Both the position numbers and the translations under genes were made by a program. DNA of 64,000 nt from positions 1 to 64,000 of the forward strand of contig JASWJB010000024.1 of the NCBI GenBank assembly GCA_032433595.1. The letters run 5' to 3'. This DNA is from Conoideocrella luteorostrata. Its lineage: Eukaryota > Ascomycota > Sordariomycetes > Hypocreales > Clavicipitaceae. The notes beneath the pieces are model-generated. The model ran no database searches and had not been told where the DNA came from. It saw only the letters and a list, made by a program, of their open reading frames with translations. This document shows positions 15,416 through 56,042 of this stretch, piece by piece; the stretch's first letter is position 1, and each line of letters begins with the position of its first letter.

Positions 15416-15906
15416 TCTGAGCCTGGCGGAGGGGGGGGGTTTTTTATCGCCAACGAGGAAGAAGAACATGCGGGTTATCTTTAAACAAGTTCCTCTTAAT
15501 TATATGTGTTGGGACTACATAATTACGATTCGCGATTCCCGGAACCTGTTTCCAATTTGACCGCCGACGAATTTGCTTTGGGGCAGCCCTATAGTGCAAT
15601 TTAGCATATTCACGCCTATTCTCCCCGAATAGGGTTTCCTCTGCATAGCTTTGCACTAAGCTTACTTAATTGTAACAACACCAGAGCTCAAGACACATCA
15701 AAAGCTTTTCCTTATTAAATTAAGGCGCTCAGGACTAAGAACCACTATTTAATCTAAGTAAGAGACTATTGTTTAAACAATTAAAAAATCACCGTAAATC
15801 TTATCTAGGTAGACTAGCAAAGTTTGTTAATTAATTTTTGTGCTATATACAATGCAATTAGTCTTCGGACTATACACTTTAAAACAATTTATCTACCGTC
15901 TTGCTC
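15416..15906. other. AT-rich spacer
   Basis: AT-rich, with a G8 run at about 15430-15437. No gene or structured element recognised. It probably includes the membrane gene promoter and the 3' end of the MADS-like gene. Confidence 0.4.
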
Positions 15907-16287
15907 TTACGGCCTTTGTGCTTTCCCCCGAAGAGTGTGCGGTGTATGTTTACGAGGCAATGGGTACGTCTGTTGCTGCCAAAAAGGTTAGAAAGGATCA
16001 AAATTAGTTATTGCTGTACCTACAACGCTTTGCTCAGTAAGAGGCCAGGTATCAGACGTTTCGGACTCGTAGATGTCCAGACGGCCTTGCAATCGAACCG
16101 CAAGATACACTTGGGCACCACATAAATGGCGGATCTCGTCACATTTTCGAATAAGCGTCTCCCGGCGCTTTGATGCTTTATTTCGAAGGAGTGTAATGCG
16201 TTTCTTAGCCGGATGATCGGTAGTAAACGCTGCAGGGCTGGTAGGTGCATTGTGAAGCAGATGGGTGTCCTGTTGGTCATTGGCCAT
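15907..16287 (-). CDS. Small MADS/SRF-like protein
   Basis: ATG at 16287. Exon 16287-16024 joins 15975-15907 through an intron (GTAGGT...CTAACCTTTTTGGCAG), giving about 110 aa. The core KKRITLLRNKASKRRETLIR, then KCDEIRHLCGAQVYLAVRLQGRLDIYES and TWPLTEQ, follows the MADS pattern: basic helix, K-ADEL--LC, hydrophobic strand with a G-turn. The spliced tail YPLPRKHTPHTLRGKAQRP is basic. It is divergently arranged with the 146-aa gene at 17176 across an 890-bp region filled with a palindrome array. Fungal genomes carry many short MADS-like proteins of unknown role. Binding to the array is conceivable but unproven, since MADS proteins normally prefer CArG-type sites. Confidence 0.65.
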
Positions 16288-16452
16288 CTTGGTGTTGTTG
16301 TTGTTATATTTGCTCCCCTCTGAGTAAACCCGGCGTCGCTACTTAATATACTAGTTGTATTGTCATCTCACTTTATTCTGCGTTCCCGGAAACGGGTTAC
16401 GGGGGGCGTGCGACAGTGGGGCGGCATCGCGCCAAAATCAGGTGAAGCTAAA

Positions 16453-17065
16453 TTTACTAGTAAACAAGTTCTAAGGCGTAAAAAGATCATTAGGCGCGAA
16501 GGGAGTATGACTAGTAAAGACGCATAATGTTTTAATAGTGTATTTTACTTACTAGTAATTTCCAAGGGAACTAGGCTTAAGATACTAGTAAAGGACGAGA
16601 ACGCGGAAACATAATCAGTTATTACTAGTAAATGTGCAGACTGCCACAGAAGTTTACTGGTAAATACACTAGATGTGGTAGAAATTTACTAGTAAATAGC
16701 CGCGACAGGAAACGGAAAACAGTATTTACTAGTAAATCTTGTTTGAGTCGCACGAAGTTGACTAGTAATCCCTGCCCGGCCTAACTCGGACCAGCATTTA
16801 CCGGTAAACATGCAGAATACTGGATACAAAATTGGGATGAAATATTACTAGTAAATAGCTCTAAACGCTAAACAGGAGATTATCTTTTACCAGTAAACGC
16901 GCAACACTATTAAAATAGATCCAGGGTTTACTGATAAGCATCCCCAACCCATATCAGGAAACGGAAAGCGGGAGACGGGTAATTACTGGTAAATATGTAA
17001 AAGTCAGAGATGCACAAAATTTTGCTAGTAATTAGGCCTAAAAGCCGACAGCTATTACTAGGAAG
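16453..17065. repeat. Array of 16 palindromic sites, consensus TTTAC-YR-GTAAA
   Basis: Sixteen 12-bp dyads start at about 16453, 16507, 16548, 16581, 16621, 16653, 16685, 16725, 16758, 16797, 16844, 16886, 16927, 16982, 17021 and 17054. Exact TTTACTAGTAAA occurs at 16453, 16685 and 16725. Central dinucleotides are mostly TA, with TG (16653, 16982), CG (16797) and CA (16886). Centre-to-centre distances are 54, 41, 33, 40, 32, 32, 40, 33, 39, 47, 42, 41, 55, 39 and 33 bp, so most are near whole helical turns. The sequence between sites is not conserved, apart from a CAGGAAACGGAAA string present twice. This looks like a multi-site protein-binding region rather than a tandem repeat. Confidence 0.9.
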
Positions 17066-17083: not shown

Positions 17084-17095
17084 TAAATATTTAAA
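17084..17095 (+). promoter_or_regulatory. TATA-like box TAAATATTTAAA
   Basis: Lies about 85 bp before the ATG at 17176 and about 20 bp after the last palindrome. It is followed by CCCGC as at 13043. It is the likely core promoter that the array would control. Confidence 0.55.
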
Positions 17096-20848: not shown

Positions 20849-21529
20849 TTAGTCAAACCAAGAGCTCGTGCGGGCCCTTTTTCGGGCGCGCGCTGATCCA
20901 GACGATGGTGTAGGGCTTGAGGGCATTGATGGTGCCGACAATGGTCGACGGCGTTTTTGCCCTAATGATGTTGGTGTAGATGAAGTGACGAATTGAGGCG
21001 TACAGTACGAAGGTGATGTCGCCTTTGACCCCGGCTGTTCTGGCTCCACCAAAACAGGCGATAGAAATGGTGCATCGTCTGTGATTGAATTGAAAGTGTC
21101 AAAATCTTCTGAGGAGGGAAAGATCAACTCCAGGTTGTCTGATGTTGCTTCATCTCGTGGCGTAGCCGATTGAGGGCTGCTCATATCTACCACAATGGTA
21201 TCGGGATTGTTGGACAAAGCGGGTGTTTGCTGTTGAAGATCTAGAGACTGGGAAAAGGTGTCCCAATCTACTAGATTTGGCCGGTAATTGACGTCGCCCG
21301 GTCCGAGGAGCTGTACTGTCTCATTGAAAGTCCAATCTGGAACGAAATCATCATGTGTCTTGAAATGGATGATTTTCCCCTGTCTTTCGACGAACACAGC
21401 GACGCGTGAGTCAAGATTGGCGAGCTCTATCGCTTTTCGTACTATGCCCTCGGTACGAGTCTTGAAACTGCGTTCTGGGTCTCTTGGGGGTTTCCAAGAT
21501 TTTGAAGTGGTGCTGAGCGGGACTGCCAT
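20849..21529 (-). CDS. MADS/SRF-like protein with disordered tail
   Basis: I use the internal ATG at 21529 (MAVPLSTTSKSWKPP), about 226 aa, because it sits just before the domain. A 27-residue longer form from 21610 is open. The MADS-like block is ERSFKTRTEGIVRKAIELAN followed by SRVAVFVERQGKIIHFKTHDDF and PDW. This matches the R-K-T---KKA-EL---C-V-VA--I---GK pattern but lacks the usual Cys. The rest is Ser/Pro/Thr-rich and ends in a basic nuclear-localisation-like segment (LGQKRRRPLSAP, ARARKRARTSSW). It is probably a transcription-factor-like nuclear protein, and lies head-to-head with the ferric reductase gene. Confidence 0.6.
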   Translation of the reverse strand: MAVPLSTTSKSWKPPRDPERSFKTRTEGIVRKAIELANLDSRVAVFVERQGKIIHFKTHDDFVPDWTFNETVQLLGPGDVNYRPNLVDWDTFSQSLDLQQQTPALSNNPDTIVVDMSSPQSATPRDEATSDNLELIFPSSEDFDTFNSITDDAPFLSPVLVEPEQPGSKATSPSYCTPQFVTSSTPTSLGQKRRRPLSAPSMPSSPTPSSGSARARKRARTSSWFD

Positions 21530-21815
21530 TACTGAGACGACTGATGGAAGAGAATGAGAGATGGGGAAAACTTGAAGCGTGAAACCAAAAGCTGCGTCCT
21601 TTGCGGGCATTTTAATATCCTACAGTGACCTGTATCAGAAAGGGTGGTTCTATTTTGGGAAGCATCTCTAAGCGCCAGGAACGAAAACCGTTCTCCGTTT
21701 CCAATTTTGTACTGCAGGCGCGCGCCAAGAGTGTCACTTCTCCACATTAAAAGGCACATTGCCAAGTCGTGAATCCGTGGTTTGACTCTCTGTGTTCTAA
21801 CCGACTGCGCCACTC

Positions 21816-23746
21816 ATGGACCTCATCAACGTGTACCTGATTGCCCTGTGTGGCGCTGTGGCGGTGCCTTTGTTCTACGTCGTTGTTCGAATCTTTCATA
21901 ACTCCTTCAAACCATACGTTCAACGATCATTTGTGCTGCTTGTACACTCAGACTTAAGATACTTTGGACACATAAGTTGGCTGCATTTTTGCATTTTTGT
22001 GTTCTATGTGGGTATCAACGCCACTATCCTCAGTCTAGGCGTTGACAGCATAACAACTTTGATGAAAAACTCTTCAAGAATTGCCTCAGCAAATTTGATG
22101 CTCCTTTTTTTGGGTGGCAAAACCAATCCAATCGTGGACAGAATTCAGGTCTCTCTCCGCAACTACTATTTTGCCCACCGAGCTATCGCCATAGTGGCCA
22201 CTAGCGAGGCTTTTGTTCACGCTGGAATTTCGCTGCGAAATGAGAGTCACAAACCGCTGTTAATATCTGGGATTGTAGTAGGTCTTCCTCGCTGTATACA
22301 AACCAAAGCAGCACATCTGAGCTTGCTGACACATAGAAAGATCGCAGGCTGCATTGTGGCCATCATCATCAGCGTGGTATACCCTGGTCGACGGCTAGGC
22401 AGATTTTACGGCAAGATCCATGTTCTCTTTAGCTTGGGAGTCGTGCTTGGACTCGTGTGGCACGTATTGCTTCAGCCTTCTGTATCGAGTAAGATTCCAG
22501 TCTTTGTATGCTGCGGACTGTGGTTAAGCACGCACATGTATCGACTTATCCGTATGTTTATCTTGAACTACTTCAGCGCACGGGTGGGCCAGCGGAAACA
22601 AAAGAATGATTTGACACTAATAACCATGAATCTCAATAAATTGGCACCATTCTATCCGGGGTGCTATTACTACATATTCTTCAACGGCCCCTTGCCATTT
22701 TACGATCTCTTTCATGGATATCCCATGATGCCTTTTTGGGAAGATTCCGATGATGTTACTACAGAGTTTTCTTTTCTAATGTCACGGAAGGGAAGCCATG
22801 GACTTCCTCTAGCAACCATGGACGAATGGAAACGCGTACGACTTGATGGGCCTTATGGGAAAGACCATCGGTTACAGAACTTTGAAACAGTACTTCTTAC
22901 GGCTAAGGGTATGGGCATTGTAGGTGTGTTACCTTTTGCGCTGCATCTAGCTAAACGTAGAAGGCGCGACGACGATGTTCGAAGAAAGGAAGCTCGCCTG
23001 AGAGATTCTAATGACCCAGTTTTCGGCGACTTGAGTCGTCGAGTCGACCTGATCTGGTGGTTGGAAGACAATGATCAAGAAGTTTGGGTTTCGAAACAGC
23101 TCAAGAGGCTGCAAGTTCTGGATAACAAGGTCTGTCTTCCTTACCGCGTATTATATGTACCCGATGAGCACTCCTCTAAGAGCCAGCAGAGACTTCTGGT
23201 GGTGTGGTGTGTATACCCCGATCTCCGACATGATAAGAAGATGCCCTTTGAAGCCAATGAATACTGGAAAATACGATACAATTTCAATCTACAATCATTT
23301 TCAAGGGAACTGCGACAGGAAGCTCGCTATCCTGGAGACACAGTGCTTTTATGTGAGAATCACGCGTCTTTCGTTCTGACCACTAATACTAATTTTGATG
23401 ATTAGCTTGTGGAGATGATGCGTTCGTGAGTACCATGCGCAAAACAGCCGTTGATAATACCACAACAGAGAGGGCAATTAAGTTCGTAGAAGTGGAATTT
23501 CGTCCCGGCCGGATCGACAGAAAAGCTCACAGTTCTTCCACCTATGCACTACTGAGTTCAGTCAAAAGGCCACCCCGAGTCAAGAGAAAGGGAAAGAAGC
23601 GTTCAAATCATCGCGACGACGATTCTTTTGACTCGGAGACCACCTTGATAGATACACATGAAATGAGTTCAAATGTACATAGAAAAAAACACCGCGCAGC
23701 GTCCAGAAAAAAACACAGGTCGCCTGATGCGTCTGATGTTGTCTGA
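21816..23746 (+). CDS. Ferric reductase-like transmembrane flavocytochrome (Starship-associated FRE type)
   Basis: Two exons (21816-23352 and 23406-23746; intron GTGAGA...ATTAG) give about 625 aa. The first 260 residues are hydrophobic with bis-heme-type helices, including YYFAHRAIAIVATSEAFVHA and YGKIHVLFSLGVVLGLVWHV, each with the spaced His expected of FRE/NOX proteins. An FAD-domain remnant (KLAPFYPGCYYYIFF) and the NAD-binding region LDGPYGKDHRLQNF, LLTAKGMGIVGVLPFALHLA follow. The spliced end VLLSCGDDAFVSTMRKTAVD is the usual FRE C-terminus, extended by a basic low-complexity tail (RVKRKGKKRSNHRDDDS). Electrons would pass from NAD(P)H across a membrane to ferric iron. This FRE type is one of the recurrent accessory genes of Starship elements. 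Confidence 0.85.
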
Positions 23747-23859: not shown

Positions 23860-26525
23860 TTAAAGCATCTTATATGAATAGATAATGCTATCTAGGGTGT
23901 CTCGTAGTCGACCAATCTCTTCCACAGTCGCTTCGCTAAGACCTTGTGAGGTATTGCACATTTGATGATCATTTCTTCCAAAAACGCAGTCAAGCCCTTG
24001 GTCGCTAATCAGATCATTTAATTCGTATGGACAGTGACTGATACTCCTTCTGTATCCTGTTTTGCTCTCGATCTGCACGTCGATTTTGGAGTGCAACGAG
24101 CTAAGTTTAATGCTGAGAATTTTGGAGAATGGCATTCCGCTAATGCATCTCGAGAGGCAGGTAGCGGTCACGAGACCTTCTTCGATGTACTGTCTCTGAT
24201 CGGCTCGGTAGAAAAGTCCCGAGTTCTTCAATTGGAGGCCCTTGATCAGTGCTATCAATGCCGGTCCTGGTGGTACCCGACACATCAGGCGAACACGCGC
24301 CACTTCGGGCACTGAATAGAAGAAGGGCTTCGACAACAACTCGATATAGAAAAGGCTAGAAACTAGTTGACTTGCCGTAGCTGCTTTATCTTCCTGCATT
24401 CCGCACTGGCCAAAAAATCTGACGACTATATCCATGGATTCAATGATAGAAGCGGGTAATCTGGGACAACGTGAGCGGAGGCTTATGTCGACGGGGTAGA
24501 AAATACAATACACTTACTTTAAGTAATTCCGCGATGTGTTGGAGATAGCCTGCCCTTGAGCATGCAAATTAATCTCTGGTCCATTTGACAAACTTATTTC
24601 TTTCGGATTCCATTGCAGATTCTTGCCAAACGAGATTCGATCTGGCTTTTTGTAAAGTTTTGGTTCTCTGGCTTTCTCCAAGTGGTATTTACAATCGTCG
24701 AGTGACCAATTTTCTACGAAAAGTGTGTGTACGAAGAAAGAACCTTGATAAAATTAGCAACTGAAAATCAGTCCGTGAAAATTGCGAGGTTCTTACCTAT
24801 ATCAAGACTTTTTACTATGTCAAAGTGTTCTCTTAGTGGAAGAGGCAGCTCTATGGCGAGCTGAAGCTGCTTCAAAAAATGCCACAACTCGTTTTTGCTA
24901 CTGGCTGGCCCTGCAAGCTCAAGAACTCTTGTTCCTGCCGTAGGCGGACGCAAGAACAAGGTTTCTTCATTGATAACATGGCATAGTGGGCATTTTTTGA
25001 GCACGACTGTGCGTAGTTCTGGCGATGTTGGACCGCAATGCATGATCACACAGGCGTCACAAAAGCGATGCTCGCACTGCAAGGTGTGCCTCGGGCTGCG
25101 CGCAAAGCAGGCTAAGCATGTAGAAATGCTTCGAATTTGTTTCCAGTCGTCTTTGTAGCTCAGTAGTAGGCGCCCATGAGCACGCGCTGAGGAACCCTCT
25201 TTTCTCTCCCAAGAAAATGTGATAAACCGATTGCGAACCTCGGCAGCGAACCCCGAGAGATTCCAGCGACGCTCGACGTTCTCTATCACTGAAAGGTATA
25301 GTTTGTCAAATGTGGAATCAGCATGGAAATCTGGATTCGGTTAGCCCTCGCGTAAAAAATGATTGGAGATGATCAAGAGCTCACGATGCATGCCAGGGGG
25401 ATGAGCGTCAACATGCAGCGCAGATGCGATCAACTTGGCTTGATCAACATCAACGCCGCTGCAGCTCTCCATGAAATAGTTCAAGTGCATCTCGAACTCG
25501 TCGGACACTGGATTAGGCAAGCGAGAGGCAGAAATTAGGTTGATTTGTTGACGATTGCCGGCGCAGTAATGGCGAATAGCGGCTTGCAGCAAATACTTGA
25601 CATGTTCCCCATCAAATGCATAGCCGTTCCCTTCGCGAAAGCTAAAAGCTTCCTCTATGTTCAATTGAAGAAAGTCCGTCGTCGCAGCTACGGTAGAGAC
25701 TAGTCGTAAGCTCTCGAATGTATGTGTTGATTGAAAGATGACTCCCTCGTCCATATCGCCGCTCTCCGAATCCAGGTCATGGACAAAAGCCACAACTCTT
25801 GCTCGGAGTCTCGCTGTAAATTTCTGCACTTGCAACTCCTTGTTGCAATCATATAAGACCAGGATTCTGGGAGCAGAGGGAGTCGGGTTTGCGGCAGATC
25901 TCCGCATCCAAGAGGCGATGACTTCAATGACAGAGCTTAGACCCCCTATGTCCTCGAGAAAAATAATAATGATCGATGCCAATGGGGTAAGAATTTGCCA
26001 ATATATGTCATGAGAAAGTTCGGTTAGTCTCTTCTGAGAACACGCGCGCGGAACAAAAGCTTGCAGAGGGTGTTGTGTGCAACTCCCTTCTTGAGAGCTT
26101 GCTTTCACGGATTCTAAGGATGTGAGATCGTGCAGTTCGCAATCCACCAGAACCGTAGTCGGTGTCCATTGTTGTATTCGAATCGTCGGCGCTCGACACC
26201 TTGGGAGCTGACCTGTTGCTGAGGCAAAAAACCGCCTCTTGGACTCGCCACCAATTGCAACAACTATGCGCGGTGGTGATTCATGGTGGTCAAAACACCT
26301 GTACGCTCCAAACTGTTCCAGCAAGATTGGAAACCCACCACCAGCGGACTTGAGCTCAATCCAATTAGTTTGCGTCATCGTCGGAAGAAAGTTGTCTCGG
26401 ACTCGGACACCGAATCGAGTGGCAAGCCCTATAAGGGGTCGCACCAAGTCCCAGCCCCGCCTACTCCGCGGCAGTAATCTGTTTCCCGTAGACGGAACCA
26501 TTCCTCTCGAATCTGGACCACTCAT
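23860..26525 (-). CDS. Patatin-like protein lacking its catalytic core
   Basis: Four exons on the minus strand (26525-25385, 25330-24797, 24713-24518, 24460-23860) keep one frame, about 823 aa. The N-terminal region contains IIIIFLEDIGGLSSVIEVIAS. A zinc-finger-like block follows near residue 450 (STCLACFARSPRHTLQCEHR-FCDACV and KKCPLCHV). PPTAGTRVLELAG leads into the patatin fold, where GGGxRG is replaced, and HFDIV is followed by KSLDIENWSLDDC instead of GTSxGG. The C-terminal family end is present (LVSSLFYIELL, LMCRVPPGPALIALI, CPYELNDLISDQGLDCVFGR). No Ser-Asp dyad is visible. Starship-borne patatin-like proteins share this architecture. This copy is probably enzymatically dead but still open. 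Confidence 0.8.
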
Positions 26526-26608
26526 GTCATAGGCAGCTCATAATTACAGTCAGTATCCCCTGCAGACCTATCATTTTACCGAGCCAAATTACTAAAATTG
26601 CAGGGAAC
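26526..26608. promoter_or_regulatory. 83-bp divergent intergenic promoter
   Basis: Only 83 bp separate the start codons of the minus-strand patatin-like gene and the plus-strand DUF3723 gene. Either a compact bidirectional promoter is used, or one of the two has an upstream exon inside the other. Confidence 0.5.
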
Positions 26609-29467
26609 ATGGAGTTAGTCGGAATCGTTCGCTGTCCTATCCACTGCCTGTGCATGTATGGTGAGGGGAGGCAGCTTAGCCCGCAAGTTCTCAATCGAAT
26701 CACAAAAAGATTTCTCAGAGTCAAATGCGTACCTCACGAACGACGAAATCATGTCCGGGGCATCATAACACAGCATGATTTGGAGAATATTTTGTCCATT
26801 CTCGGCACATCGCGAAACGGGCTAGCAGCCACGACCTACAATTCTCATTACCCTCTGCTCTCGAGCTTTCGCATTGCGTGCCTCGATGGGCGACACCGGC
26901 TCGCGGCGGCATCTCGTCAACGCCTACGCAAATCTTGGGTTGTGAAGCTTTTCTGTGTCTCCGGAGAATGGGTTGACTTTCCCATTAAGCTCCGGCCGTA
27001 CACGATAAGTCAGCAAGCGCTCCAAGACGAGGTAGAATCCTATTCGCACGAATCTAACTATTCTGACGGCGACATATACAGACTGGTTCGAAAGTACATG
27101 CTAAAGAAGAACAAGATTCGAGAAACAGAGTGTCGAACTAGATTGAGTGCTTGCAAGGAGGTCAGCCTCAATGGGCTCTTGAAGCAAGCCGACTTGAGGG
27201 ATTCTATTGACCGTCTGCTGGAGTACCCGGGCACGATTGGGGGCCTTCAGTTGGGCAACATCCACAAAGATATTGCTCTTCACTGTAACGAACAAGTGAC
27301 CCATTACTTGGACAACAGGATTCTGAACACGTGGGCTTTCATTACTGCAAAGAATCCGGACCTAAAACGCAAGGTGGACCTGGAGACTGTCGAATGTCTT
27401 CAACTGCGTATTCCATTTGCAAGCAAGACCGATCGAAGACATATCGAGGGAATGTTCGACAGAAAAGAAGTGTTCTCATTTGTTGAAAACCCAATCATAA
27501 GAGAGCAGCTCAAAAGACGAGTGTTATCTCTTCAGGTGTCAATTCCTAGCATGGAAACGTTTCACGAAAACATGAAATACTTCTCCATCGCAGTCAAAGT
27601 TTTACGCAGATTTGTTGCACCTGATCCATCAAAACAACGTCCACAAAAGACTCTATTCCAGAGTCTTTCCCAAAATTGGATACATCCAATTGTTCCTTTT
27701 GTCGAAACAGGGGACGGGCTCATGCAACTGTTGGAACCAGCCCTCACTGCTTATATTGCCTACAAGATGCTGGTTCTCGCTGTTTTGAGAAACTTCACTC
27801 ATTTCAGCTCCCAAAGTCCCCGCCAGGATGTTCGGGGAGAAACTATGCCCGCTGTGGCAAGCCCGAAATGGATCCAATATCTTCAGCAGCTTGCCTTTGT
27901 TCTTGGATTTAGGTCCAACAAAATCATGGAGGGTGTATCAAATCCCGATCACGATGATGATACGCCGACGTTCGTTCCGCAGAATGGACCAACAGCTGAC
28001 TGGAGAGGAGGCAAGCCGTTCACAAAAACTTTTTTAGCCTTACGCTCTACAGCCTATATCGTCAATTTGAGCGACGGAAGTCCTTCCTTACAAGTAGACT
28101 GTCTAACTCCTGTCTTGATGATGCGGGATTTTATGAATTCGTTCTTTGACAATACAGAGAAATATGTTATCGATATCTCCAAACCACCAATTGACCTTGA
28201 AGCTGCGATGAACCAAGCACGGAATACAATGCTCCGAGCCGGCTGGGTGATGCCTGGCCACCGTGAAGATGCATCCTTCAGTGTAGGAATATCAGGTGTT
28301 GCGGTCGAAAAACGCAGCCGCAGCTCCCCTCAAGCACAGTCAATTCACGAGAACCACGGCCTCCAATCCCAACTTCCCCGTGGTGAGGGTAAAGATACCA
28401 ACAAAGGTCATCTCGATGAACCTAGTCCCAACATCACTGGTGCAAGCCATTCGCCGAGCATTGAAGGCAATGTATCGCGAGGTGCCGAAGATGAGACCAC
28501 TTTGTTGCGCGATGCGGTTCGATCGCCACCCCAAAGCTGTGATGGCACTTACTCAGTTGGCTCTTCAAGAGAACCAGACAGTGCTCGACTGGTTGGAGAC
28601 AAGTTTGATAGCATCACATTAACAAGAGATGATCAACGGTCTTTGCCTCGAACCCCTCAATTCGACGATGGAAACATGATTCCAGTACGAGATGCAGCTC
28701 GTTCTCCAGCATTGACTGATACAGACTTGATTCGCCAGCGAGAGATACGTGACGCAACGCCAGATGATACGTTCCAGCGGTCTTGCACACGATCGCCTAT
28801 TCACAGCCTCAACGAGCTCTCCCAACAGGGCATGGAGCGCGACATATCCCTCTCGCCACAGGCTGCGGCATCACTCTACGGAGAAGGAGCGACCAACAAC
28901 GGAGCACACCAGACAAGGCTTGGCGAACTGAGCAAAAGGCTCTATTCTCGTGAAGGTTGTGGAGCGAGTGAAAGCTTTCTCGTAACAACACTCCCTCAAA
29001 GAACCACCTTTGACTGTCGTTCCCCACCCATTGACGGTCTATCTCCCAACAGATGGGAAGTCGGTTCTGTGAACGAGGCTGACGACACCATCACGCGGAG
29101 GTCTGCCAGGTCCACTCCATCACTGCGAGGATCCACAGTCGATCAACAGACTCTTGCCGAGTCTCACCCGAAATTCGCAACGCGCACGGACGAAGAAACT
29201 CTGCCGTCCCGCAGGTATCGCTCACCTCCGAGCAGGAAGTCAAGTGTCACAGAAGATTACCTTGTTAGGGCTGGCTTGCGAAGAAATGCCGCAATGGGTG
29301 TCCGGGGACGGTTTCGACGAAGTTCGCCTGGAGCTGCTCATCCGGTGCGCATACCTCCTGTCAGATCAATGCGACCAGCTGTTTCCCCTATCCGCGTATC
29401 TCCTACCCGCATACCGCCCATTAGATCAATGCGAACTTCAAAATGGAGAGAGAGTAATTCATCATGA
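26609..29467 (+). CDS. DUF3723 domain protein with RS-rich tail
   Basis: ATG 26609, one exon, 952 aa. The first 560 residues show the DUF3723 pattern: FRIACLDGRHRLAAASRQRL, EVESYSHESNYSDGDIYRLV, RLLEYPGTIGGLQLGNIHKD, IALHCNEQVTHYLDNRIL, then LSLQVSIPSMETFHENMKYF followed by SIAVKVLRRF. The last 350 residues are low-complexity with recurrent RSP-type motifs (AVRSPPQSCD, AARSPALTD, TRSPIHSL, YRSPPSRKS) and a near-duplicate RIPPVRSMR/RIPPIRSMR pair at the end. DUF3723 has no known biochemical function but is one of the genes most often found on Starship giant transposons. It sits head-to-head with the patatin-like gene and 2.9 kb from the ferric reductase. Confidence 0.9.
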   Translation: MELVGIVRCPIHCLCMYGEGRQLSPQVLNRITKRFLRVKCVPHERRNHVRGIITQHDLENILSILGTSRNGLAATTYNSHYPLLSSFRIACLDGRHRLAAASRQRLRKSWVVKLFCVSGEWVDFPIKLRPYTISQQALQDEVESYSHESNYSDGDIYRLVRKYMLKKNKIRETECRTRLSACKEVSLNGLLKQADLRDSIDRLLEYPGTIGGLQLGNIHKDIALHCNEQVTHYLDNRILNTWAFITAKNPDLKRKVDLETVECLQLRIPFASKTDRRHIEGMFDRKEVFSFVENPIIREQLKRRVLSLQVSIPSMETFHENMKYFSIAVKVLRRFVAPDPSKQRPQKTLFQSLSQNWIHPIVPFVETGDGLMQLLEPALTAYIAYKMLVLAVLRNFTHFSSQSPRQDVRGETMPAVASPKWIQYLQQLAFVLGFRSNKIMEGVSNPDHDDDTPTFVPQNGPTADWRGGKPFTKTFLALRSTAYIVNLSDGSPSLQVDCLTPVLMMRDFMNSFFDNTEKYVIDISKPPIDLEAAMNQARNTMLRAGWVMPGHREDASFSVGISGVAVEKRSRSSPQAQSIHENHGLQSQLPRGEGKDTNKGHLDEPSPNITGASHSPSIEGNVSRGAEDETTLLRDAVRSPPQSCDGTYSVGSSREPDSARLVGDKFDSITLTRDDQRSLPRTPQFDDGNMIPVRDAARSPALTDTDLIRQREIRDATPDDTFQRSCTRSPIHSLNELSQQGMERDISLSPQAAASLYGEGATNNGAHQTRLGELSKRLYSREGCGASESFLVTTLPQRTTFDCRSPPIDGLSPNRWEVGSVNEADDTITRRSARSTPSLRGSTVDQQTLAESHPKFATRTDEETLPSRRYRSPPSRKSSVTEDYLVRAGLRRNAAMGVRGRFRRSSPGAAHPVRIPPVRSMRPAVSPIRVSPTRIPPIRSMRTSKWRESNSS

Positions 29468-41810: not shown

Positions 41811-42756
41811 GCTGAATAGTATGTGGCGCGAGACCATCCACAAAATGCACACAGAGAATGTACTGACTATTTTATTGGGCATACCAGGGCGCGCATCGGC
41901 TCTGCTGCTTAAAAATGATTTTGAACTGCGTCAATAGCCGAATCCGGCTATGCAAAAAGTGTCATGCTTGCTCTTCCTGTTTTCCGGGGCGGGGATGGGA
42001 GGAACCGCAAGCTGAAAACAGGAAGCGTCCTGAGCAAAGAACCAACAGAGCCTGAATCAGCGATCAGTAGTTCCACTTTATTGTACAGTTCTGCATGGTT
42101 TTTCTTCGTAAAATTATACGCATTGAGTTCCAAAGTTTACGTCATTATTGTTATAAATAGATGGATGAGGGGATGATGTACGTACAGTCCAACAGCCCGT
42201 CGTAGTGTTTCGCGCGCGCTATCGAGACCGTCGAAGGGGTGCAGTCAGCCACGATTCCGACAGCATATGAGTTCTTTATTTAGAAGTCAGAGTGCACTTA
42301 CAAGGATATGAAAACTTGCGCGGTACAATGAGTTCATTGATTGGAGCCGGTCAGTGGGCCCCCCGTCACATACTTTACTTCACGACATTAGTTATAACTG
42401 CAAGCTACAGAGGTAGCATTCTAAACTTAGTCCATTATCGTTTTTCACCTGCTTCCATAAACCCTATCACTGCCAAGGCTTAGCCGCCCCAAACCGTGAC
42501 ATGCATCGAGGGCGGGGGTATAACAAACAGAAAACAGGGAACGTACAGTATGCTAGACCAACAATGCGTAGGTATCAAAGACAGTTGGTAGTGCCATCTG
42601 ACTGGACGGTTTGGCACTATGGAAGACAATCACAAACCCTCTCTCCCATCTCCACTATGGCGTGTAGTATCCTAATTTAGTCTGGGCTTTTGCCCGCCCG
42701 TGCCGCTCTCTTCCTAGGACTAAAACGCAACGAGTCGTAACGTGTTGGTATTGTTC
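41811..42756. other. Spacer, about 0.95 kb
   Basis: No gene supported. Likely 5' regions of the divergent HSWVE-type and MADS-like genes. Confidence 0.4.
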
Positions 42757-42764: not shown

Positions 42765-42826
42765 CTCAACTTTCTCCGTTGCTATTTTGTTGATTCACCA
42801 AAGAACTACATCCTTTTTTCTTTTTT

Positions 42827-43552
42827 ATGAACACCCACTCCAGAACGCCCAAATTCTACAATCAACCATCAACCATGCAACACCCATTCAACATCGGACC
42901 ACACCGCTCCCACCGTGAGCGCATGGAACGTTCATTCGATGTTAGGATCAACGGCATTTACAAGAAAGCCAACGACTTGTTTCATGGGTTTGGTACCAGA
43001 ATCGCAATTCTGAGAGAAACCAATGATGGGAGATTGCAAGGTTACACACCTCTTGGATCTCAAGATTGGCCAGAGCTCTACAGGGCCGTAGAAGCTGTAG
43101 GCTTGCAATCTGAAGAAGTCCTTCACCCGCATCACTTCAACACCATAGCCGATCACAACGTCAGACTCCCTAGCCCGGCTCCCTCGTCCACGTCTAGCAG
43201 CGTATCATCAATCCCAAACAATGCATCATCTGAAGCAGACAATGATCATGCCAATCGTCACCCGGCCCAAACAACAGAATCCGTCACACTCCACGCTGCC
43301 TCCGGCTCACAAGAACCTATAACCCCAAGTACAACACAACTTCAAGAACTAGGGGAGCTAGAGGATTTTGAAGAGGATCTGATGCATGGCAGCTCAACGG
43401 TGTCAAGTGTAAGAGCCAGTGACCAGGTGAAACAAAGTCGTATTGGTGCCAAGAGAAAAATAGCGTGCGACGATGGCCCCGAAGAGAAGCGGCGACGCAT
43501 AGTGACTAGGTCGCGTACGAAGTCACAGAGGGGAGATGGTCAAGAGAGGTAA
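42827..43552 (+). CDS. MADS/SRF-like protein with disordered tail
   Basis: ATG 42827, one exon, 241 aa. Residues about 30-80 read RSHRERMERSFDVRINGIYK, KANDLFHGFGTRIAILRETN and YTPLGSQDWPELYRAV. This follows the MADS layout (basic helix, KAN-L, hydrophobic strand, W-P) but lacks the central Cys. The rest is Ser/Thr-rich and acidic, ending in basic nuclear-localisation-like segments (GAKRKIACDDGPEEKRRRIV). Third protein of this type in the window, organised like the one at 20849-21529. Confidence 0.55.
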   Translation: MNTHSRTPKFYNQPSTMQHPFNIGPHRSHRERMERSFDVRINGIYKKANDLFHGFGTRIAILRETNDGRLQGYTPLGSQDWPELYRAVEAVGLQSEEVLHPHHFNTIADHNVRLPSPAPSSTSSSVSSIPNNASSEADNDHANRHPAQTTESVTLHAASGSQEPITPSTTQLQELGELEDFEEDLMHGSSTVSSVRASDQVKQSRIGAKRKIACDDGPEEKRRRIVTRSRTKSQRGDGQER

Positions 43553-46717: not shown

Positions 46718-46753
46718 CATCCAAGATGGCATCCAAGATGGCATCCAAGATGG
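46718..46753 (+). repeat. 12-bp direct repeat x3 over a start codon
   Basis: Three exact copies of CATCCAAGATGG in tandem create in-frame ATGs at 46726, 46738 and 46750. Confidence 0.85.
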
Positions 46754-46958: not shown

Positions 46959-48209
46959 TTACCTTATCTGGCATTTTGGAGCAGCTCTCCATACATCGAA
47001 CGAGCCGCCATCACGACTTTTGAACCTAATTAGATGCTCTATAATAAATCCACGTTGTCGCCTGCGATTTCGTGTCTCCAATACTTTCTCTGCTGGCAAA
47101 TAATCGCTTCCTAGGCTATTATTATAGTTAGGGCATCGACGTTTTGCTGAACCGCTGTTGGCCCCAGCACGAGTGGCTGCAAGGCGAGAGCTGCGACGGA
47201 GTTCTGGGGGGGCAATGCCATCAGCGCCTAATCGTATTCGGGTGTTGGGTTTGTGCCTCTTATTTTCCAACTGTACAAAGCAAGTATCCTTCGGCAATTC
47301 TTTTCTCTTCCTCGAGCGAGTTGGTTCGGGAAGATGTAACCGTTCGGGGGGTTGGATATTATTAGTCATAGTGCAACGCGCGGGTGATTTCGAGTGCCCA
47401 AACTGCTCTGCATTGTTACCGCTTTGTTGTAGGCTTGTAGCAGAATAACTCGACTTCTCTATTTCCGTCTTGACTTGAGACTCTGCACAGTCTAAGGCTA
47501 AAAGTTCATCACCAGGAATAGCAGTGGCATCATCAGCTGACGGAATCCAATCGAAGATCCATTGTTTTGAGGGATCGTGGGGGGAAGGATTTGGATGTAG
47601 CCTGGTATAGATCTCCATATACTGCTTATGAAGGGAATCAGATTTTGACTTCCAGTAGCTACAATCTTCTGATAATGGCTGTTTATCCTTGCGAGAAAAT
47701 TTAAATGTTCCCTGTAAATAGAATTCGCTTTTCCGGACAACTTCCCTTCCAGCCTTTCCAAGAAGCATAAGATTAACTAAAGTTGAGCAAAAAAGGCTCT
47801 GATACCGGCTTAAACGGGCTTGCGGCTCGTGCCATCCTGGATCGCTTATTTCCTCGCTGATCAACGGCATAGCGCTTGTCGTGAAAGGAGACAAGGTAGA
47901 CGACCCCGACCGTGAGCTTGCGAGGCTATGGAGTATCGTCATTGCGCGTGAGTACGGGAGGGCGTTGTCTGTCTGACGCGCCGTATCCATCAACATTGAT
48001 GGCAAGATTGTGAAGTGCAAGTTGGTAGAGACCTCTGGAGGAGGCGGCGCTTTTCCACTTTTCCTCCTGGTAGTCGGATGATGCGTGTGCGTGTGTGCGC
48101 GTTCTTCTTGGTGCGTGTGTGCGCGTTCTTCTTGGTGCGCGTGTGCGCGTTCTTCCTGGTGCGTGTGTGCGCGTTCTTCTTGGTGCGTGTGTGCGTCAGC
48201 TTGCGACAA
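46959..48209 (-). CDS. Orphan protein with His/Glu-rich minisatellite N-terminus; start uncertain
   Basis: The frame is open on the minus strand up to 48314 but has no ATG before 47996. So translation starts either at 47996 (about 345 aa) or in an upstream exon, for example from the ATG at 48331 in another frame. Upstream of 47996 the frame encodes AHTHQEER repeats. The body includes ILHSLASSRSGSSTLSPFTT and ARLSRYQSLFCSTLVNLMLL. The C-terminal half is basic (TRSRKRKELPKD, ELRRSSRLAATRAGANSG, NRRRQRGFIIEHLIRF), with an RRSSRLAA motif common in fungal nuclear proteins. Family unknown. Confidence 0.5.
   Translation of the reverse strand: MSQADAHTHQEERAHTHQEERAHAHQEERAHTHQEERAHTHTHHPTTRRKSGKAPPPPEVSTNLHFTILPSMLMDTARQTDNALPYSRAMTILHSLASSRSGSSTLSPFTTSAMPLISEEISDPGWHEPQARLSRYQSLFCSTLVNLMLLGKAGREVVRKSEFYLQGTFKFSRKDKQPLSEDCSYWKSKSDSLHKQYMEIYTRLHPNPSPHDPSKQWIFDWIPSADDATAIPGDELLALDCAESQVKTEIEKSSYSATSLQQSGNNAEQFGHSKSPARCTMTNNIQPPERLHLPEPTRSRKRKELPKDTCFVQLENKRHKPNTRIRLGADGIAPPELRRSSRLAATRAGANSGSAKRRCPNYNNSLGSDYLPAEKVLETRNRRRQRGFIIEHLIRFKSRDGGSFDVWRAAPKCQIR
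48097..48192. repeat. 24-bp minisatellite, four tandem copies
   Basis: Unit GCGCGTTCTTCTTGGTGCGTGTGT; copies start at 48097, 48121, 48145 and 48169 with one or two substitutions each, and partial units on both sides. A unit length divisible by three fits a coding repeat (minus strand AHTHQEER), but at least two frames on the minus strand and one on the plus strand stay open through it. Confidence 0.85.
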
Positions 48210-55188: not shown

Positions 55189-56042
55189 ATGATGCTGCCA
55201 CCATGTGAAGGTCCTGCCCTTGATCAGTTCATCTACCATGACGCCCCGATTGAATGGCTCGAGAGACTTGACGAGAACGACAATTCCCAAGGTTATGTCT
55301 TTCGCGTCCTTATTAAAGGCAAGGAATATGCGATCAAAGTTGTACGTAATAGATCTAGGCTTCTGCAAATAGTACTACTCGCCAGTTTAACACTATATTA
55401 TAGTTCAAGTTTTATAATCCTATGAACACTGAGTACTTCTGGGGTCCTATGCTCGGCGAGGACACACCTTTAGACACAGCTGCATTCTACACTGATCCAT
55501 TCTACGCCGAATGTAGAGCTTACGGTCGTATACAAGAAGAAATTAAACGAAACAAGTTAAGCAAAGATATAGCAGTTCCTTGCTATGGCTATCTATTCCT
55601 GCAGGAAGAAGATCAAATTGTGCTTCACGAACGCGAGCTTGACCTTGAGCTTTGGAACATTAATGTGGACTATCAGAGATTAACACCTGGTGGATTGAAC
55701 CCCAGAGCTATTGTGAAGGACATTGCGCCAGCAGAAACAGGGGTTAATGGCGATAGCCTTCAGAAAATTCTCCGCGATGTCACAAGTCTTAACAGACAAG
55801 GTATCTACAATATGGACATTAAAAAGGATAACTACCGTGGAGGTAGATTAGTGGATTTTGGTTCATCGTGGACCAAACCGCATTTGCTCTTAGATGCCTG
55901 TAATGCTAGACAGAGCTATGCATCACGGGCAGCAGACAGAGCTATGTTCGACGAGATGGTAAGGGAGGAAGAGATTCCAAATCCGAAAGGAGTGAAGGCA
56001 ATTCATGTCATGAAGAGGAGATCACAGGTTATCCGAGAGTAA
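55189..56042 (+). CDS. Fta2-like pseudokinase-fold protein
   Basis: I use ATG 55189 (MMLPPCEGPALDQFIYHD). Exon to 55341 joins 55404-56042 (GTACGT...TATTATAG), 263 aa. The join gives KEYAIKVFKFYNPMNTEYFW followed by YTDPFYAECRAYGRIQ, a block I recognise from the Sim4/Fta2-like family (kinetochore subunit Fta2 domain), which has many accessory copies in fungal genomes. A kinase-like core remains: YAIKV lysine, GIYNMDIKKDNYRGG and RLVDFGSSW. It ends MKRRSQVIRE. Kinetochore function should not be assumed for an accessory copy. Confidence 0.7.

What the first reader, a model, noticed from the sequence alone, without database searches (positions are those of the whole stretch)
16453..17065. Sixteen-copy palindrome array TTTAC-YR-GTAAA in one intergenic region
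Seen directly: 16 dyads of 12 bp within 613 bp, variable sequence between them, and the motif essentially absent elsewhere in the window except for isolated ACTAGT hexamers. Such density implies a dedicated binding protein. Candidates are an operator/enhancer for the divergent genes, or an iteron- or parS-like nucleation site for DNA segregation, replication or silencing. I know of no described fungal element with this form.
Basis: partly seen in the sequence, partly recalled or inferred. Interest (0 to 1): 0.88.

Follow-up and report, generated by a model that had tools for sequence, protein, structure and literature searches.

The report
Clustered palindromic binding sites between genes
Between two genes of what appears to be an insect-killing fungus lie sixteen near-identical palindromes that look like docking sites for one paired DNA-binding protein, possibly the MADS-type regulator encoded next to them, and a second looser cluster sits on a contig with related genes.

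Summary
Sixteen dyads with core TTACYRGTAA (at most 1 mismatch) lie at 16453-17065, 32-55 bp apart, between divergent genes. A Markov model gives 0.3 such sites on average and at most 4 in 20,000 runs. Close pairs were found nowhere else in the 46.4-Mb genome. It is not an evident satellite. The species, Conoideocrella luteorostrata, is inferred from one protein match.

The left gene encodes a 97-aa MADS-like protein, the right a 146-aa orphan. A second cluster, 19 looser sites sharing only the TACYRGTA core, lies at C200:575-1223. C200 carries divergent relatives of the window's genes: MADS-like, ferric-reductase-like, DUF3723. Relatives of that reductase were found on three contigs.

Best reading: a homotypic operator/enhancer for the divergent pair, bound by a symmetric dimer. 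The neighbouring MADS-like protein is my leading candidate, not shown: the sites have the TA-N4-TA spacing of MEF2 boxes but a CYRG centre instead of W4. I found no positive support for replication or Starship-landing readings; a kinetochore-family ORF lies 38 kb away. No relative's DNA was available, so conservation is untested.

The parts
16453..17065 (.). Array of 16 dyads, core TTACYRGTAA (12-mer starts 16453, 16507, 16548, 16581, 16621, 16653, 16685, 16725, 16758, 16797, 16844, 16886, 16927, 16982, 17021, 17054)
   Evidence: statistics; pairs elsewhere in genome none found
16349..16356 (.). Possible outlying site (TACTAGTT), 1 mismatch to TACYRGTA, near the left gene
15950..16287 (-). Divergent left gene, MADS-like protein of 97 aa (QQS21_002083); exon 1 16020-16287, intron 15976-16019, exon 2 15950-15975 (exon borders deduced by me by fitting the DNA to P0002)
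   Evidence: Pfam SRF-TF 8.5e-6, 25.6 bits, just under the 26-bit cut-off, profile 13-38 of 48; protein P0002
17176..17616 (+). Divergent right ORF, orphan protein of 146 aa (P0001), no Pfam match, only itself found at E <= 0.001 among 5.8 billion proteins; low-confidence model (mean pLDDT 47.8)
17088..17095 (+). TATA-like stretch TATTTAAA between array and right ORF; read by eye, not tested
20849..21619 (-). Second MADS-like ORF, recognised by eye only; no Pfam match
21801..23405 (+). Ferric-reductase-like ORF; a relative is on contig C200
   Evidence: Pfam Ferric_reduct 4e-5, under cut-off; C200 match 34%, 5.6e-34, stops in frame
26492..29467 (+). DUF3723 ORF; a relative is on contig C200
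   Evidence: Pfam 9.6e-79; best match among the fetched loci is on C200, 27%, 5.9e-27
42794..43552 (+). Third MADS-like ORF (SRF-TF E 0.13 only)

Best explanation
The array is a homotypic cis-regulatory cluster (operator/enhancer) in the shared promoter region of two divergent genes. About sixteen copies of one symmetric site are each bound by a homodimer, loaded side by side or cooperatively, so that expression of the genes switches sharply with protein dose. The most likely binder is the MADS-like protein encoded at the left edge, making an autoregulatory loop inside an accessory gene set of Starship type. Shown: the sites, their number, symmetry, spacing and rarity, the divergent ORFs, a partial MADS match, and a second looser cluster on a contig with a related gene set. 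Inferred: that the array is bound, that binding regulates transcription, the sign of regulation, and that the MADS-like protein is the binder (about 0.3 by itself).
For: 16 sites against 0.3 simulated. Both halves of the dyad are conserved, which points to a two-fold symmetric binder. The array fills most of the 888 bp between two divergent start codons, 165 bp from the left ATG and 110 bp from the right. Spacers are mostly unrelated while sites are kept. Spacing is even, and positions cluster at a 10.55-bp period, R 0.72, p 0.0014. The left gene is MADS-like, and P0003, the only other protein found, keeps the domain while the tails differ. C200 has 19 core sites (at most 1 mismatch to TACYRGTA, two of them overlapping) within about 650 bp; simulated mean 2.3, maximum 11 in 20,000. 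C200 also has two MADS-like matches (one over, one under the cut-off), DUF3723 and a ferric-reductase-like match; relatives of that reductase were found on 3 contigs of 620. The TA-N4-TA spacing matches the MEF2 box CTAWWWWTAG (passages of PMC3250504). Weak and after the fact: the next-densest place of YTA-N4-TAR in the window (4 in 640 bp, mean 0.53) is 42151-42723, just upstream of the third MADS-like ORF.
Against: No binding or expression data. The centre is CYRG, not W4, and the outer base of the C200 sites is C/T in only about 53%, so the MEF2 resemblance reduces to TA-N4-TA. The C200 cluster is about 7 kb from the nearest MADS-like match there, and its flanks show no clear divergent genes. 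The other MADS-like ORFs of the window have no cluster of this core. The two-sequence model of P0002 is one long helix at high confidence, not a MADS fold. For C200, helical phasing is not significant (p 0.07), and in the window an 8-bp period fits as well or better. I found the C200 cluster by searching for this core, and away from C24 the three-core matches (11) do not exceed the backwards control (27); five of those contigs were not read.
Confidence: 0.42

Rival explanations
1. Same operator/enhancer function, but bound by another homodimeric factor (for example of forkhead or bZIP type); the neighbouring MADS-like gene is a target only.
For: The right half with its flank reads GTAAAYA (Y at +12 in 14 of 16; p 0.0006 before correction for columns), the forkhead consensus RTAAAYA as I recall it; TTAC/GTAA halves also recall Yap/PAR bZIP sites (recalled).
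Against: The left half lacks the matching flank; a 2-bp gap between TTAC and GTAA is unusual for bZIP (recalled); a general host factor might be expected to leave such pairs elsewhere, and close pairs were found only here.
Confidence: 0.3
2. The array serves a mobile element itself: binding sites of a Starship captain or other recombinase, or a landing pad.
For: DUF3723 and a ferric-reductase-like gene are nearby, gene kinds listed for Starships in passages of PMC9594970. The Janus target motif A(N3)TTACTA(N2)A(N15)CT (Table 1 passage of PMC12153272) shares TTACTA(N2)A with the array, and 15 of the 16 matches to TTACTA(N2)A in the window, both strands counted, are in the array.
Against: Full Janus motif: 0 matches in the window. 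No DUF3435 match on C24. TTACYRGTA is absent from the 17 fetched DUF3435 loci, some overlapping, with about 1.5 kb of flank; TTACTA(N2)A is not enriched there (10 in 59,927 bases against 39 in 106,333 bases of other loci).
Confidence: 0.07
3. A replication, partition or silencing nucleation site (iteron/parS-like).
For: Dense short dyads in one intergenic stretch; an ORF of the kinetochore family FTA2 at 55404-56042.
Against: The FTA2-like ORF is 38 kb away; no initiator or ParB-type match in the 30 of 78 ORFs scanned. The sites lie between divergent start codons, as expected for a promoter.
Confidence: 0.06
4. A decayed tandem satellite with no present function.
For: CAGGAAACGGAAA occurs exactly at 16706 and 16955; mean spacer similarity is above shuffled (P 0.04) and so is the best pair (P 0.005); one flank column is borderline (0.88 against a 95% null maximum of 0.88).
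Against: TRF reports no array here; spacers differ in length and are mostly unrelated while the dyads are kept.
Confidence: 0.1

Closest known systems
Homotypic clusters of transcription-factor sites in eukaryotic promoters
   Same: Many copies of one symmetric short site between two start codons, variable spacers
   Different: 16 copies in 613 bp is more than I recall for fungal promoters; motif and binder unknown
MEF2-type MADS boxes (CTAWWWWTAG)
   Same: 10-bp dyad with TA-N4-TA, and a MADS-like gene next to it
   Different: CYRG centre instead of W4; the MADS match is partial and just under the Pfam cut-off
Starship giant transposons (fungi)
   Same: DUF3723 and ferric-reductase-like genes in the region; related set plus a DUF3435 fragment on C200
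   Different: No captain match on C24; ends and target-site duplication not looked for; no such array in the Starship passages I saw

Membership tests
Homotypic transcription-factor site cluster | Several near-identical short sites, far above chance, in putative regulatory DNA | tested here: met
Homotypic transcription-factor site cluster | Bound by one factor and regulating nearby genes | not testable with these tools
   needs DAP-seq/ChIP and deletion
MADS (SRF/MEF2) operator | CArG CC(W)6GG or MEF2 YTA(W)4TAR boxes | tested here: not met
   none in 16453-17065; two CArG and two MEF2 boxes in the window, all elsewhere; one loose Mcm1-type match at 16948
MADS (SRF/MEF2) operator | A MADS-domain protein is encoded at the locus | tested here: inconclusive
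   SRF-TF 25.6 bits against cut-off 26; 26.1 in the six-frame search; model not of MADS fold
Starship | DUF3435 captain at one end | tested here: not met
   0 of 17 DUF3435 matches are on C24; the contig begins at window position 1, so an end may be missing
Starship | Auxiliary genes DUF3723 and ferric reductase | tested here: met
   DUF3723 far over cut-off, ferric reductase under cut-off
Starship | Terminal inverted repeats, target-site duplication, empty site in a relative | not tested
   no relative's DNA available
parS/iteron locus | Cognate partition or replication-initiator gene at the locus | tested here: inconclusive
   no such match among 30 of 78 ORFs scanned; an FTA2 kinetochore-family ORF 38 kb away
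Tandem satellite | Head-to-tail units with alike spacers | tested here: not met
   TRF none; spacers mostly unrelated, with slight excess similarity

The most novel reading that the evidence does not exclude
Starship-type accessory gene sets of fungi carry their own regulator and its docking array: a divergent MADS-like protein with an altered box (TACYRGTA core) loads many clustered sites to control the set, and arrays and proteins have diverged together between copies (TTACYRGTAA on C24, degenerate outer bases on C200).
Probability: 0.2. Interest if true: 0.75.

Novelty: new variant of a known kind. Interest (0 to 1): 0.52.

Why it matters
If true, it gives a readable docking array for a regulator carried in fungal accessory or mobile gene blocks, whose regulation is little known as far as I recall, and a direct test of how divergent MADS proteins choose DNA. 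Even if the binder is another protein, the array is a ready bait for finding it.

Tried and rejected
Some are dense (L097 with 21 sites of at most 1 mismatch in 613 bp, L099 with 19, L134 and L227 with 13); I guessed repeats in coding DNA and did not check. Exact 8-mer clusters (5 or more in 640 bp) in the window: only this array and a short repeat at 48095. 8-bp periodicity: strong in the window array, not confirmed in C200 (p 0.14). Starship landing pad: no full target motif, none at the DUF3435 loci. C34:128411, the third three-core place, read by eye: no array. An unbiased scan of palindromic cores over 268,920 bases of this genome ranks many AT-rich stretches and the L055 tandem repeat as high as the two clusters; it is not composition-corrected. 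No Rfam match in the window, no tRNA (bacterial settings). As RNA the array folds better than 20 shuffles (z -2.2), as repeated palindromes would. The bacterial promoter scan says nothing here. Fold of the orphan: mean pLDDT 47.8, not searched. PDB by sequence for P0002: best match SEPALLATA 3, E 0.28. Papers: the strings TTACTAGTAA/TTTACTAGTAAA occur in 25 papers, 15 listed; none of the 15 titles concerns a fungal element, and in the one I opened they are cloning primers (PMC3248443). No paper held five of six Starship/palindrome/cis-regulatory terms. Listings (titles and abstract openings) name no element of this form.

Full report
WHAT IS THERE. The window is the first 64,000 bases of a 256,252-base contig, C24, of a 46.4-Mb genome in 620 contigs. 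The protein of the left neighbour gene matches QQS21_002083 of Conoideocrella luteorostrata (97% over 94%), on a contig of the same length. The published draft of strain ARSEF 14590 is 47.39 Mb in 864 scaffolds (PMC12352038; I read part 1 of 2 of its text). I infer the species from this; the assembly figures are not the same.

The array holds 16 dyads. With the 10-bp core TTACYRGTAA all 16 have at most one mismatch and 10 are exact; the window has 4 such places elsewhere. Simulated DNA of the same first-order composition gives 0.3 on average and at most 4 in 20,000 runs. With the looser 12-mer at up to two mismatches the contrast is smaller: 15 of 42 window matches are here, 28.45 expected in all. 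Spacings are 54, 41, 33, 40, 32, 32, 40, 33, 39, 47, 42, 41, 55, 39, 33; such evenness was not reached in 100,000 random placements. Positions cluster at a 10.55-bp period (R 0.72, p 0.0014 against random spacings of 32-55) but also at 8.0 bp (R 0.77), so a helical reading is only suggestive. Both halves of the dyad are conserved. Spacers are mostly unrelated, but a 13-bp stretch occurs twice and mean similarity is slightly above shuffled (P 0.04). Tandem Repeats Finder reports nothing here.

GENOME-WIDE. Pairs of TTACYRGTAA 16-46 bp apart: 5 places, all in this array; backwards control 0. Three TACYRGTA cores 18-48 bp apart: 7 places, 5 here, one on C34, one on C200; control 3. Three TACYRGT 10-40 bp apart: 25 matches over both strands, 14 here and 11 on six other contigs; control 27. 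So away from C24 three-core matches as such are no more frequent than chance. I read two of the other places: C34 is not an array; C200 is a cluster. C200:575-1223 holds 19 places with at most one mismatch to TACYRGTA, two of them overlapping; simulation gives 2.3 on average and at most 11 in 20,000. Its outer bases are degenerate, so only the 8-bp core is shared; it has one place within one mismatch of TTACYRGTAA.

THE NEIGHBOURS. Left, reading away: a 97-aa protein with a partial MADS (SRF-TF) match, 25.6 bits against a cut-off of 26 (26.1 in the six-frame search). The only other protein found, P0003, keeps the domain and differs in the tails. A two-sequence AlphaFold model shows one long helix, which speaks against a standard MADS fold or reflects the thin alignment. 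Right, reading away: a 146-aa orphan, only itself found, no Pfam match. Further along lie a ferric-reductase-like ORF, DUF3723 and two more MADS-like ORFs, one seen by eye only and one with E 0.13.

THE RELATED GENE SET. C200 (81,776 bases) carries two MADS-like matches, DUF3723, a ferric-reductase-like match at 15772-16794 with stops in frame and a DUF3435 fragment. Relatives of the ferric-reductase-like protein were found only on C24, C200 and C151. The window's DUF3723 is closest, among the fetched loci, to that of C200 (27%, 5.9e-27). Thus the two contigs with clusters of this core carry divergent relatives of one gene set. I noticed this after the fact, and it rests on one second cluster. 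DUF3435, ferric reductase and DUF3723 are named among Starship genes in passages of PMC9594970, but C24 has no DUF3435 match, so I do not call the region a Starship.

HOW IT MOST LIKELY WORKS. A dense set of symmetric sites between divergent start codons is what one expects of an operator or enhancer bound by a homodimer. I favour autoregulation by the MADS-like protein for three reasons. It is encoded at the edge. Both contigs with clusters carry MADS-like matches, while the SRF-TF family gave 8 matches at E <= 1 on six contigs in all (that search also missed the window's weaker MADS-like ORFs, so the count is low). And the core has the TA-N4-TA spacing of a MEF2 box (CTAWWWWTAG, passages of PMC3250504). 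Against it: the centre is CYRG rather than W4, no CArG or MEF2 box lies in the array, the C200 cluster is some 7 kb from its MADS-like match, and other MADS-like ORFs of the window lack a cluster of this core, though the next-densest YTA-N4-TAR place, four sites, lies just upstream of one of them. A different dimeric factor is the main rival; the right-hand flank GTAAAYA recalls a forkhead site (recalled, not from a call).

VERDICT. For segregation, replication and landing-pad readings I found no positive evidence at the locus, an FTA2-family ORF 38 kb away aside. Without DNA of a relative I could not test conservation, which is the largest gap.

Noticed in passing
L300 (G000:C200:575-1223): Second cluster of 19 looser TACYRGTA sites near a contig start, on a contig with MADS-like, DUF3723, ferric-reductase-like and DUF3435 matches.
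   Followed up: partly
window 26492-29467 and 21801-23405: DUF3723 and ferric-reductase-like ORFs of the Starship auxiliary type on a contig without a DUF3435 match.
   Followed up: partly
window 42151-42723: Four YTA-N4-TAR sites (one a MEF2-type TTATAAATAG), the densest place for that pattern outside the array, just upstream of a MADS-like ORF.
   Followed up: partly
window 55404-56042: ORF with a strong FTA2 (Sim4 kinetochore subunit) Pfam match (2.1e-33); a kinase-like relative, in my guess.
   Followed up: no
window 48087-48195: 24-bp tandem repeat, 4.5 copies, inside a long minus-strand ORF.
   Followed up: no
window 46718-46753: 12-bp tandem unit CATCCAAGATGG, three perfect copies.
   Followed up: no
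L055 (G000:C313:45964-49155): 21 copies of AGAATGC within about 320 bases near a DUF3723 fragment.
   Followed up: no
L013, L014, L051, L052: AT-rich stretches with many TA-type words around stray motif hits and DUF3723 fragments with many stops; looks like RIP-mutated DNA (my reading).
   Followed up: no
L227 (Alkalihalobacterium chitinilyticum): Six pairs of TTACYRGTAA at steps of 102 bases (one step skipped); cause not checked.
   Followed up: no
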